From positions 1 to 64,000 of the forward strand of contig NVXK01000021.1 of the NCBI GenBank assembly GCA_002733905.1: a stretch of 64,000 nucleotides of DNA, written 5' to 3'. The position numbers and the translations under genes are program-made. Shown here in pieces: positions 48,701 to 50,650 of the stretch. The first letter of the stretch is position 1. Each line of letters opens with the position of its first letter. The notes under the pieces are model-generated. The model searched no databases. It was not told where the DNA came from and saw only the letters and a list, made by a program, of their open reading frames with translations. The stretch is from Robiginitomaculum sp. GTDB lineage: Bacteria > Pseudomonadota > Alphaproteobacteria > Caulobacterales > Maricaulaceae.

Positions 48701-50650
48701 CCATCTGGACGCGTGGTGAAATATGTCCGCGACGCGGCGGCACGTATTACCAGTATTGAAACCCAAGACCCGAATGAGACCAGTTTCACCACGCTCATGA
48801 ACACCATAAGCTATACAGCTTTCGGCCCTATGACGGGTGGTGTATATGGGGATGGTCACAGTCTGGCCATTGATTATGACCAAGCTTACCGCGCGACCAA
48901 TCTCTCACGTATTCACACGAATGGTACGTCGCTGATGGATATCGGGTTTGAGTATAATCAAACGGGTGATATTACCGCCTTGGTTGACAAAGTCCGTACA
49001 GATCGCAGTCAAGAATTCGCCTATGATGATATTTCGCGTCTGATCTTCTCGCACGGTGGCTATGGTGATTTCTCATTCAGCTATAATCTTGTTGGTGACC
49101 GTACTGTGCGCGAACGCACTTATGACGATAATGGCACATCCATCGTGGACACCCATCTCTATGATTACGACCCAACAACCATGCGCCTCAGCGAAGTAAC
49201 ATCAGAGCAAACAAATACGGCATTACGCACATTCAGCTACGCCGCGACGGGGCAGGTGATTAGTGATGAACGCACAGACGCGCTCTACACCTATGGCCTT
49301 AATCAAAATGGCCGCATAAACACTGTCAGTATGGCGGGCGCAAGTGTCGCCACATACACCTATGACGATGATGAACAACGCATTGTCAAAGCGATCACTG
49401 GTCAATCTCCCATCCATTATATCTACGACCAAGACGGGCGTCTCATCGCGGAACATGACGGGGATACGGGCGCAGTGCTTCGTGAATATATGTGGCTTGG
49501 CATGATGCCAGTGGCGACATATGTGAGTACGTCTGGAACTGGTGAGTGTGATGAGGACGCGATAACGGCTCTGGAGCAAAACATAGCGGATATCACAGCT
49601 CTTATTACGACCCGAACCACAAAAGCGGAAAACCTGCGTACAAAAATCACAGTGGTCAACACGCGTATTACGACCAAGCGTGACAAGATTGCTACGCACA
49701 AGGCAAAAATTGTCGAGCTAAAGGCCAAGATTGCCAATACTAACAATACGACCCGTATCGCTAATCTCCGCGCAAAAATCGCCACAAAACGCGCGAGAAT
49801 TGATAATTTACGCACACAGATAGACACGCTTAAAACCAAACGAAAAGCCCATAATAAGAAGTTGAGAAAGCATGAAAGGCGTATCGGTATTCTTGGGCAA
49901 GAACGCACCGCATTGACGACAGAGCTTGAAGCCCTGCAATCTCAGTGCGAGGGAGGCGAAGCCACAGCAGGCCTCTATTTCCTCCACGCCGATCATCTCG
50001 GTAAAACCCAATTCGCAACCGATACGACGGGCGCAATCATTTGGGACGGTGGCATCACCACCCCGTTCGGCGAGAGCCTAACCCTCGCCTCCGCCTTCAC
50101 CCAAAACCTCATGTTCCCCGGCCAATACGCCGATTCAGAGACAGGCCTCAGCCACAACTGGCACAGAACGTATGACCCAATGCTCGGGCGGTATTTACAG
50201 AGTGACCCGATTGGGCTAGCAGGTGGGTTGAATAGGTATGCTTATGTGGGTGGGAATCCAGTGAGTTATGTTGATCCGACAGGTGAGTTTGGTATTTTAG
50301 GGGCGGTTTTTGGTGGTGGATTGAACCTATTCACACAATTGGCACTCAATGGTGGTCGATTAGAATGTGTTGATTGGGCAGATGTTGCAGTTTCGGCAGT
50401 TGTTGGTGCATTTATCCCCGGAAGTTTATCGAGCATTAAAACTGCTAGGGTAGCCTTTCGAAAACGAAAACAAATTTCTGGGTTTCTAAAAAAAGCAAAA
50501 AAAGCAAAAAGTATACAAAAATTTAAAAGGCGACGAGCTAAGGCAGACCGTATCCTTGCTACAGAAATAGGAATTCGAGTTGGAGCAGAGGGAATTAAAC
50601 ATGGTCTTAAAAAATCATTAAACTATCAAAAGGAAAAGTGCGGGTGTTGA
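45740..50650 (+). CDS. Secreted RHS/YD-repeat protein with coiled-coil insertion and variable C-terminal tip
   Basis: A 1636-residue protein. It has an N-terminal signal peptide (cleavage near VYA-QD), then a Cys-rich segment, a DUF6531-like entry region (NSNPIHLLTGAKVQ..), many YD repeats (about 560-1250, such as YDYDGAGRLLGITQ) that form the RHS cage, and the conserved core ending DPIGLAGGLNRYAYVGGNPVSYVDPTG (to about 1515). Between YMWLGMMPVATY and the core lies an unusual Lys/Arg/Thr-rich coiled coil (about 1277-1403) bracketed by Cys1270 and Cys1403. The tip (1516-1636) is a hydrophobic then strongly basic domain ending KCGC. The tip is the likely toxin; its activity is not recognised. 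Confidence 0.9.
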   Translation: MLMNRIYIFCILCVSFFFAGNITVYAQDMGDGDLGWCTVQNSGQDNICVQSAHEACRIQMESFAPTSYIRPTEVSVKGLSASCDWPVWPEVNEHIRPASVGKRCKSGYGRIGGVCREENSQDPPISNNSGSCDINTAPNSNPIHLLTGAKVQTVMDFETLDGLMSLKRVYNSMPGTAAIYSKGAGIGAKWRLSTSFEVRAYDGSGINIKTTNGGLIALTRNSEGVYKFNNAGGGGGVAGSQIVAWRGVTVEPEAGEEDIITLKIYDFQGTEYLVSSRKPSRFDTSGLAATLHKITYQNGYVQNYYYKSILDGRSTVLDKITDSYNRTMSFEYLVVGFVNGSEDLGVLPRLYAISAVDFPDGSRVEYSYKSHIAFNQKWGIPDVLEKATYISENGVETTETYHYENPNFQNALTGITDANGVRYANWTYNSRGLAISSEHALGTDHVDVAYSELGRYVDQTRTVTNPLGKEAVYNLNHYASSLRIVSIDGQVSDNCPASNKQFKYNSLFSNPARLRRGLISTIDKEGRETKFERDYLGRVTKKITAVGLPEESTTLTSWHAQYNAPTQIVVSGLTTDYDYDGAGRLLGITQTDTSGVGSGTPRNWAFSYTADGLNVASIDGPLAGAPDTQSFTYDGPNLTSVTNALGHMTQITSHSSLGLPTMIVDPNNVSTALAYDHLNRATTISQNIGGDVAITNISYDNVGNVTQIIPPNGASLSFVYDDARRLTSITNAVGETINYTHNVMGAMVSMNITGADQAIAYQLSQTLDELNRVITSVAAAPLAGTGAGASSTTRFGYDKEDNLTSTTDPRGGQWSQAFDGLNRVISSSNAIGATTTLKRSAANDNRNDLTEVEDARGATTNYLLNGFGEVIRETNFETGITNYVRDARGLVTQMTDARGIVTNYTYDAASRPLTLTYPDASENISYVWDSAAYGIGQIASVTEGYGVTEYSYNALGHMLSTTRTINGQTYTTQYSYDLAGEMLTTTHPSGRVVKYVRDAAARITSIETQDPNETSFTTLMNTISYTAFGPMTGGVYGDGHSLAIDYDQAYRATNLSRIHTNGTSLMDIGFEYNQTGDITALVDKVRTDRSQEFAYDDISRLIFSHGGYGDFSFSYNLVGDRTVRERTYDDNGTSIVDTHLYDYDPTTMRLSEVTSEQTNTALRTFSYAATGQVISDERTDALYTYGLNQNGRINTVSMAGASVATYTYDDDEQRIVKAITGQSPIHYIYDQDGRLIAEHDGDTGAVLREYMWLGMMPVATYVSTSGTGECDEDAITALEQNIADITALITTRTTKAENLRTKITVVNTRITTKRDKIATHKAKIVELKAKIANTNNTTRIANLRAKIATKRARIDNLRTQIDTLKTKRKAHNKKLRKHERRIGILGQERTALTTELEALQSQCEGGEATAGLYFLHADHLGKTQFATDTTGAIIWDGGITTPFGESLTLASAFTQNLMFPGQYADSETGLSHNWHRTYDPMLGRYLQSDPIGLAGGLNRYAYVGGNPVSYVDPTGEFGILGAVFGGGLNLFTQLALNGGRLECVDWADVAVSAVVGAFIPGSLSSIKTARVAFRKRKQISGFLKKAKKAKSIQKFKRRRAKADRILATEIGIRVGAEGIKHGLKKSLNYQKEKCGC
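49002..50280 (+). repeat. RHS 3' core, master copy
   Basis: This part of the main RHS gene (from RSQEFAYDD through the coiled coil to DPTG) is the template that recurs downstream. A colinear copy of the same length lies at 52082-53360, and shorter copies at 50781-51066, 54575-55396, 56379-56660 and 57645-57892. All are in the same orientation. Confidence 0.9.

What the first reader, a model, noticed from the sequence alone, without database searches (positions are those of the whole stretch)
49541..49948. Cys-bracketed coiled-coil insertion just before the RHS core
In other RHS proteins the LG..PVA segment is followed closely by the HADHLG core. Here about 125 residues of regular Lys/Arg/Thr/Ala-rich heptad-like sequence intervene, beginning right after GECDED and ending in QSQCEGG. 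The two Cys at residues 1270 and 1403 sit at the base of what could be an antiparallel helical hairpin closed by a disulfide. The insertion is copied with both Cys kept in cassettes 2 and 3. A projecting hairpin on an RHS cage could be a receptor-binding or delivery spike.
Basis: partly seen in the sequence, partly recalled or inferred. Interest (0 to 1): 0.75.

Follow-up and report, generated by a model that had tools for sequence, protein, structure and literature searches.

The report
Clamped coiled-coil arm on toxin cage
A secreted bacterial toxin of the Rhs "cage" type carries a long two-helix arm, bracketed by two cysteines, on an outward-facing loop of its cage; related marine bacteria carry different arms at the same spot, so it may be an exchangeable part for recognising target cells.

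Summary
P0001 (window 45740-50650) is an Rhs protein with a 134-residue Cys-to-Cys segment (1270-1403) between a shell strand and HADHLG; these are the only Cys between residues 496 and 1542. Two orphan cassettes keep it; cassette 3's two extra residues sit at the predicted tip. AlphaFold2 gives two long helices with the turn at the midpoint, flanked by cage strands. The homologous Tse15 loop is reported as exterior. Among 137 family genomes, 5 were found to carry a Cys-bracketed coil here (105-221 residues); 18 read loci have short loops. Insert similarity ranges from none detectable to clear and does not follow the cores: one pair with 93% identical cores has coils without detectable similarity, another with 72% shares its coil. 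One Rhs gene elsewhere in the phylum carries HYR domains at this loop. Best reading: an exchangeable, outward-projecting recognition arm, comparable to colicin or klebicin helical receptor-binding parts and CdiA's modular receptor-binding region. Position is well supported and the hairpin confidently predicted; disulfide and function are untested. One long relative is predicted with unequal arms, against a simple base clamp there. New variant of a known kind.

The parts
45740..50650 (+). Full-length Rhs polymorphic toxin gene (P0001, 1636 aa): apparent Sec signal peptide, Cys-rich N-terminus, DUF6531, YD/RHS repeats, hairpin insert, Rhs core, variable C-terminus
   Evidence: Pfam RHS_repeat E 8.4e-37 and DUF6531 E 3.7e-6; NCBIfam Rhs_assc_core 90.7 bits, cut-off 32.5. 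Signal peptide judged by eye from the translation.
49505..49525 (+). Last shell strand before the insert (residues 1256-1262)
   Evidence: AlphaFold2 strand E497-503 of the fragment 760-1530
49547..49948 (+). Cys-bracketed coiled-coil hairpin insert, Cys1270 to Cys1403, 134 aa
49553..49738 (+). Predicted ascending helix (residues 1272-1333)
   Evidence: AlphaFold2 H513-574
49736..49756 (+). Hairpin tip NTNNTTR (residues 1333-1339; predicted turn 1334-1336); cassette 3 has its two extra residues here
   Evidence: lowest helix propensity at index 66 against midpoint 66.5; turn 575-577; best placement of the two extra residues
49748..49951 (+). Predicted descending helix (residues 1337-1404)
   Evidence: AlphaFold2 H578-645; block confidence 75 and then 50 at its end
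49970..49990 (+). Next shell strand, leading into HADHLG (residues 1411-1417)
   Evidence: AlphaFold2 E652-658
50060..50284 (+). Rhs repeat-associated core (residues 1441-1515)
   Evidence: TIGR03696
50285..50647 (+). Variable C-terminal (toxin) region, residues 1516-1636
   Evidence: position after the core; differs between cassettes
52627..53028 (+). Second copy of the hairpin (orphan cassette 2, ORF 52069-53790), both Cys kept
54653..55060 (+). Third copy of the hairpin (orphan cassette 3, ORF 54539-55831), both Cys kept, 2 residues longer at the tip
50746..51534 (+). Orphan cassette that begins downstream of the hairpin (core plus variable C-terminus)
56460..57203 (+). Orphan cassette that begins downstream of the hairpin
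57599..57904 (+). Short orphan core fragment

Best explanation
The insert is a two-helix antiparallel coiled-coil arm of about 10 nm, grown out of one beta-turn on the outside of an Rhs toxin cage, just before the Rhs core. Two cysteines bracket its base and probably form a disulfide once the protein has left the cytoplasm (inferred). Related loci replace or rebuild the coil while keeping the site and the two cysteines, so the arm behaves as an exchangeable module. Its most likely job is target recognition: an exported Rhs toxin without a T6SS needs its own way to engage another cell, and the arm would hold a binding tip away from the cage. Shown here: sequence, copies, site, Cys pattern, decoupling of arm and core. 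Predicted: the hairpin. From a paper on a homologue: the loop is exterior. Inferred: disulfide and binding. Structural part about 0.85 likely; recognition function about 0.45.
For: AlphaFold2 on residues 760-1530 with 20 natural rows: H513-574, turn 575-577, H578-645, block means 75-96 over the arm up to its last block (50), mean pLDDT 83, pTM 0.73, beta strands directly before and after. VIA-align 2: the shell aligns to solved Rhs cages (8qja_C Z 36.6, 552 aligned, 2.1 A), and 512-647 aligns to a long coiled coil (9e5c_1t Z 12.7, 132 aligned, 2.2 A; a Z that long helices can reach by common arrangement alone). The lowest helix propensity sits at the midpoint for own1 (66 of 66.5), own3 (67 of 67.5), G024c (109 of 110) and G723 (59 of 60.5). 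[quoted passage not shown] Size: G024c insert about 29,900 A3 against a Rhs1 cavity of about 28,000 A3 (PMC8636562). Each of the 8 complete inserts, delimited by its outer Cys, holds no other Cys; 0 of 12 insert-less rows have Cys in the loop. Decoupling: G024b/G698 core 93% but insert z 0.4; G698/G710a core 72% but insert z 14.9; DNA agrees. One clade of insert-bearing cores rejected, p-AU 0.00015 with 19 rows and 0.00013 with the two rows of unknown state left out. No T6SS VipA in the genome; E. coli control positive. Insert omega 0.08-0.22.
Against: No binding, delivery or toxicity data. Confidence is low at the base (blocks of 63 and 50), so the Cys-Cys distance is not established. For G024b (200 aa) the model breaks at Asn-Pro and gives helices of 87 and 111 residues, pTM 0.34; of the 50 VIA-align 2 rows shown none spans both arms well (one spans 102-212 at 21.6 A); there the base Cys would be out of register. 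G710a and G698 have their strongest helix breakers away from the middle. Several insert pairs keep moderate similarity (window copies to G024b z 5.9-6.3, to G710a z 4.5-5.7), so some coils may share an origin and have diverged rather than been swapped. On the core trees well-supported branches alone force only one change of state. Variation between the window's copies is mild and not focused on the tip, apart from the two extra residues. AlphaFold2 readily predicts helices for such sequences.
Confidence: 0.5

Rival explanations
1. Self-assembly or anchoring: the arm links Rhs cages to each other, or to the producer's envelope or another secreted protein, rather than to a target cell. Coils would then co-vary with a partner in the producer.
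For: Coiled coils are common oligomerisation parts (recalled). Rhs cages can dimerise: the Tse15 paper's discussion reports an RhsP dimer essential for T6SS prey-targeting and dimers of RhsA (passage seen). Net charges differ strongly: +15 to +17 in the window's copies, -4 to -14 in relatives.
Against: Decoupling of arm and core between relatives would break a partnership unless the partner moved too; no partner gene was identified or specifically searched for. Relatives in the same genera have Rhs loci without the arm.
Confidence: 0.25
2. Tolerated low-complexity expansion: the loop is permissive, a heptad repeat expanded by slippage or recombination, and only helicity is kept. The Cys pair merely tidies the base.
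For: Hellea balneolensis inserts consist of 21-aa units and differ by one unit; Rhs proteins elsewhere have loops of varied length at this site. The window and G024 inserts keep a similar start and moderate overall similarity, as drift from a common coil would leave.
Against: The two outer Cys are kept in 8 of 8 complete inserts while much between them diverges. Insert omega is 0.08-0.22 rather than near 1. A different fold (HYR array) sits at the same loop in G908. A shared coil on distant cores, with a coil lacking detectable similarity on a near-identical core, is hard to get by slippage.
Confidence: 0.2
3. Translocation arm: the hairpin opens, like klebicin C's TolC-binding hairpin, and is threaded into or through an outer-membrane channel instead of only binding with its tip.
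For: Klebicin C's 150 A helical hairpin unfurls into TolC (PMC12927319, passages); the lengths are comparable.
Against: In klebicin C engineered disulfides across the hairpin abolish activity, whereas here a Cys pair sits at the ends of all 8 complete inserts. The arm is internal, not next to a disordered N-terminus.
Confidence: 0.05

Closest known systems
T6SS Rhs effectors of known structure (Tse15, Tse5, RhsA, Rhs1, 8qja)
   Same: Same shell fold and Rhs core (VIA-align 2 Z 30-37; sequence hits mostly to the core); the loop at this place is exterior in Tse15
   Different: No PAAR domain found and no VipA in the genome. The alignment leaves about 40 residues for the Tse15 loop, against a Cys-bracketed 134-residue coil here
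Mosquito SGS1 (Rhs/YD shell with receptor domains)
   Same: Receptor-type domains inserted into the Rhs/YD shell sequence and decorating its outside (PMC9935623, passages)
   Different: SGS1 inserts are a beta-propeller, Ig-like lectin/CBM domains and a wedge; no coiled-coil hairpin in the passages seen; insert positions seem to differ (rough count)
Colicin E9/E3 coiled coil and klebicin C helical hairpin
   Same: Long helical coiled coil or hairpin in bacteriocins that bind outer-membrane receptors (PMC12927319, passages; that the colicin coil's tip binds BtuB is recalled)
   Different: Those are not Rhs cages. Klebicin C's hairpin opens and is inactivated by engineered disulfides; here a natural Cys pair brackets the base
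CdiA modular receptor-binding region
   Same: Exchangeable central region that sets receptor specificity in a polymorphic toxin (PMC5371414, abstract)
   Different: CdiA is a two-partner-secreted filament (recalled); its receptor region is not a Cys-bracketed coil in a cage loop
   Same: An extracellular-type module inserted at the same turn before HNDHLG, partly kept in orphan cassettes
   Different: Tandem Ig-like HYR domains with an acidic linker instead of a coil

Membership tests
Rhs polymorphic toxin | YD/RHS repeats | tested here: met
   PF05593 E 8.4e-37, 7 stretches; TIGR01643
Rhs polymorphic toxin | Rhs repeat-associated core before a variable C-terminus | tested here: met
   TIGR03696 90.7 bits, cut-off 32.5; different C-termini in the cassettes
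Rhs polymorphic toxin | Rhs shell fold | tested here: met
   VIA-align 2: 8qja_C Z 36.6, 552 aligned, 2.1 A; predicted model
Rhs polymorphic toxin | Downstream orphan cassettes | tested here: met
   six copies of the core segment counting the main gene; ORFs
T6SS-delivered Rhs effector | T6SS sheath gene in the same genome | tested here: not met
   no VipA (PF05591) match in G000, 96.9% complete; E. coli control rings
T6SS-delivered Rhs effector | N-terminal PAAR domain | tested here: not met
   no PAAR model among the 19 families listed for P0001 at E up to 1
Sec-exported Rhs toxin (WapA-like) | N-terminal signal peptide | tested here: inconclusive
   read by eye as basic start, hydrophobic stretch and VYA-Q; no predictor run
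Colicin-type receptor-binding coiled coil | antiparallel two-helix hairpin | tested here: met
   predicted only
Colicin-type receptor-binding coiled coil | binds an outer-membrane receptor through the hairpin | not testable with these tools
   needs binding experiments
Colicin-type receptor-binding coiled coil | sequence or domain homology to colicin R domains | tested here: inconclusive
   no colicin model among the best 25 of 66 Pfam matches shown for the insert; coiled coils match many models weakly
Disulfide-closed hairpin | the two Cys form a disulfide | not testable with these tools
   outer Cys pair in 8 of 8 complete inserts; model confidence low at the base; G024b predicted asymmetric

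The most novel reading that the evidence does not exclude
The turn before the Rhs core motif is a general display slot on the outside of Rhs cages. Some lineages plug in different target-binding modules there (Cys-bracketed coiled-coil arms in the Hellea group, HYR arrays in G908, an uncharacterised helical-looking insert in G930) and exchange them independently of cage and toxin. Rhs toxins would then be three-part mosaics: cage, aiming module, warhead.
Probability: 0.4. Interest if true: 0.78.

Novelty: new variant of a known kind. Interest (0 to 1): 0.62.

Why it matters
How Rhs toxins that leave the cell without a T6SS find and enter targets is open as far as I know (recalled, not searched exhaustively). 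A discrete, exterior, apparently exchangeable arm, with relatives in a cultured species (Hellea balneolensis DSM 19091), gives a concrete part to delete or purify. If it sets target range, Rhs toxins would join CdiA and colicins in having a modular aiming part, and the loop before HxDHLG would be the place to look in other Rhs proteins.

Tried and rejected
Disorder, or part of the barrel: not what the model shows. Common feature of all Rhs: rejected. Weak insert hits in G033, G037, G107, G304 and G066 were unrelated coiled-coil proteins. In the class search, loci that matched mainly the coil part (L046-L051, L055) show no more than one stray Rhs motif; L044 matched likewise, and its one core-like motif lies on the other strand. 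The first genome-contig scan and the viral-contig scan found no relative; plasmids gave none with the insert-bearing query. The second genome-contig scan gave 8 loci, two of which named G024 and G710; three Rhodobacteraceae ones are cut short after the first strand. VIA-align 2 on the G024b model gave nothing useful on the arms; the absence of a family there proves nothing. SGS1's wedge domain as the same site: judged not, because it lies about 270 residues before the end of the aligned Rhs region against about 112 here (rough count). Variation focused on the tip as a sign of receptor evolution: not seen in the window's copies; in G698/G710a the centre is more alike than the arms, 16 of 25 against 26 of 80 identical, p 0.005, window chosen afterwards, wider windows 0.03. 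Cys in the loop as an exclusive mark of the insert: one distant insert-less Rhs (L120) has Cys in or beside the loop. Paper searches for a coiled-coil insert in Rhs proteins listed none that I recognised; two searches returned no paper at all because every term was required, and most subscription papers are not in the library.
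Full report
WHAT IS THERE. The ORF 45740-50650 (+) encodes a 1636-residue Rhs protein. Between the strand in ...MWLGMMPVATY and the motif HADHLG lies a segment bracketed by Cys1270 and Cys1403, 134 residues Cys to Cys. These are the only two Cys between residues 496 and 1542. Hydrophobic residues repeat at about 7.2-7.3 positions, and of the Pfam matches shown for the segment alone none reaches its curated cut-off. The own genome has three copies: the main gene and two orphan cassettes, 92% and 96% identical to copy 1 in protein. 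Insert omega is 0.22, 0.08 and 0.19 for the three pairs of copies, against 0.04-0.07 in the adjacent core: purifying selection, somewhat weaker than in the core. Cassette 3 carries two extra residues, best placed at the middle of the segment.

IS IT A HAIRPIN? AlphaFold2 on residues 760-1530, with an alignment of 20 natural rows, gave mean pLDDT 83 and pTM 0.73. It shows a beta shell, a 62-residue helix (1272-1333), a three-residue turn and a 68-residue helix (1337-1404), followed by the next shell strand. The turn falls where helix propensity is lowest, index 66 against a midpoint of 66.5. Block confidence is 79-96 through most of the arm, 75 near the end of the second helix, and 63 and 50 in the two blocks at the base, so the distance between the two Cys is not established. 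By VIA-align 2 the shell matches solved Rhs cages (8qja_C Z 36.6, 552 residues, 2.1 A). Residues 512-647 match long coiled coils (9e5c_1t Z 12.7, 132 residues, 2.2 A; 8glv_Do Z 9.8, 128 residues, 2.0 A). This fits two packed antiparallel helices, but such Z-scores are common for long helices and say nothing on function.

WHERE IS IT ON THE CAGE? In Tse15 the equivalent strands end near residue 1242 and resume near 1286 (alignment to chain 8uxt, whose numbering fits the D1391N named in the entry title). [quoted passage not shown] The loop is thus exterior in a homologue. Size agrees: the largest relative insert, about 29,900 A3 (computed from mass), exceeds the Rhs1 cavity of about 28,000 A3 (PMC8636562, passage), and its arms would be about 16 nm against a Tse15 cage about 10 nm long.

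HOW COMMON IS IT? With the insert alone, 3 of 41 genomes (own plus 40 relatives) matched; the two others are unrelated coiled coils. With insert plus flanks, 15 of 299 order genomes matched, among them G024, the first other genome with the arm. A profile of both (A1) was searched in 137 family genomes: 28 had a match. Of these 28, 5 carry a Cys-bracketed coil at this place (G000, G024, G698, G710, G723); 18 have a short loop at the locus read, many of them from a different Rhs subgroup; 4 were not readable or not read at the loop (G013, G018, G050, G718); and 1 (G145) matched only a coil in a protein without Rhs motifs. As a rule one locus per genome was read. In 385 class genomes 13 matched, the own one included; the matches that cover mainly the coil are not in Rhs proteins as far as the loci show, and I recognised no further insert-bearing locus. 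In 398 phylum genomes 97 matched a profile of insert-less Rhs; the loops of only some were read. Most of those are short to moderate. G930 has about 75-80 residues without outer Cys (two loci). G908 has an array of HYR domains (7 Pfam stretches in L124 and 3 in L144, regions that overlap by 0.8 kb) with an acidic linker at the same turn, partly kept in its orphan cassettes. Among plasmids, 60 of 60 listed rows (of 1205 matching records) have no long gap here. Named matches: G024 is Hellea balneolensis DSM 19091 and G710 is Hellea sp. MAG-149.

ARM AND CORE ARE DECOUPLED. Eight complete inserts were compared: window copies 134, 134 and 136 aa; G024b 200; G024c 221; G710a 105; G698 105; G723 122. 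Each was cut at its outer Cys and holds no other Cys; three further incomplete copies (one in G024, two at G710 contig edges) keep the one outer Cys that is visible. Between genomes, core identity is 67-93% over 89-98 residues, leaving out G024c, whose core is truncated (51-81% over 53 residues). G024b and G698 have cores 93% identical, yet insert similarity is no better than 60 heptad-preserving shuffles (z 0.4). G698 and G710a have cores 72% identical, yet share an insert (z 14.9, same length, same GKKREK centre). Other pairs lie between: window copies to G024b z 5.9-6.3, to G710a 4.5-5.7, to G723 1.8-2.2; G698 to G723 5.2. The window and G024 inserts also share a similar start, so a common origin of some coils with later divergence is not excluded. 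DNA agrees with exchange in the key triple: G698 matches G024b only over the core (304 bases, 82%) and matches a G710 copy across the insert centre (70 bases, 83%). Caveats: the G698 arm is in an orphan cassette truncated upstream, and G710 has 8% and G698 1% estimated contamination. On a tree of 19 core sequences the label needs 4 changes and one clade of the 7 insert-bearing rows is rejected (p-AU 0.00015); leaving out two rows of unknown state gives the same (17 rows, 4 changes, p-AU 0.00013). Branches with strong support alone force only one change, and some branches are long. Charges differ: +15 to +17 in the window, -4 to -14 elsewhere.

RESULTS AGAINST A SIMPLE MODEL. G024b is predicted with helices of 87 and 111 residues broken at an Asn-Pro; with the tip there, its two base Cys would be about 30 residues out of register. 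Its pTM is 0.34, and none of the 50 VIA-align 2 rows shown spans both arms well. G024c, one 21-residue unit longer in the first arm, is nearly symmetric by sequence (lowest propensity at 109 against midpoint 110). G024b may be a decayed orphan, or the clamp may not hold in every copy. In G710a the strongest predicted helix breaker is not central (the second location is), and in G698 none of the top four is.

MECHANISM. The protein appears to have a Sec signal peptide (read by eye), the genome shows no T6SS sheath gene VipA, and no PAAR domain was found. An exported Rhs cage must then engage a target by its own parts. An exterior arm that varies independently of the cage while its site and Cys pair are kept is best explained as a recognition arm (inference). 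Precedents: colicin E9's coiled coil and klebicin C's helical hairpin (PMC12927319, passages), modular CdiA receptor-binding regions (PMC5371414, abstract), and receptor domains inserted into the Rhs/YD shell of SGS1 (PMC9935623, passages). Self-assembly or anchoring, and a tolerated expansion, remain possible. Klebicin C's hairpin must open and engineered disulfides abolish its activity, so a natural base Cys pair argues against full unfurling here.

NOVELTY. I found no paper describing a coiled-coil arm in an Rhs shell (search listings, two of them empty; the 2012 survey of polymorphic toxins, PMC3482391, has no hit for coiled coil, inserted or HYR in the part of the text held; four Rhs structure papers searched for the word "coiled", PMC8765631, PMC8636562, PMC11461821 and PMC10684867, have no hit). 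I call it a new variant of a known kind: an Rhs polymorphic toxin with a new type of exterior module.

Noticed in passing
L124 and L144 (G908:C135): An Rhs gene of another family in the phylum carries a long array of HYR (Ig-like) domains plus an acidic linker at the same turn, and its orphan cassettes keep part of the array.
   Followed up: partly
L134 and L135 (G930): Rhs proteins with a helical-looking insert of about 75-80 residues, without outer Cys, at the same loop.
   Followed up: no
L031:9505-12712 (Hellea balneolensis DSM 19091): Inserts built of 21-residue (three-heptad) units; two orphan copies differ by one unit in the ascending arm, so arm length seems to change by unit gain or loss.
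   Followed up: partly
window 45746-46150: N-terminal region of P0001 has nine Cys in the first 132 residues (two of them in the apparent signal peptide); a similar GWC start followed by further Cys is seen in insert-less relatives (L036, L038).
   Followed up: no
window 58089-62910: An ECF-type sigma factor and a FecR-like regulator (NCBIfam), followed by a 958-aa ORF that reads like a TonB-dependent receptor (by eye), lie directly after the Rhs cassette array.
   Followed up: no
window 51503-52066, 53768-54499, 55779-56336, 57214-57642: Genes between the orphan cassettes look like immunity genes by position. 51503-52066 and 53768-54499 have no informative Pfam or NCBIfam match, 57214-57642 none in NCBIfam (Pfam not run), and 55779-56336 has TPR repeats.
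   Followed up: no
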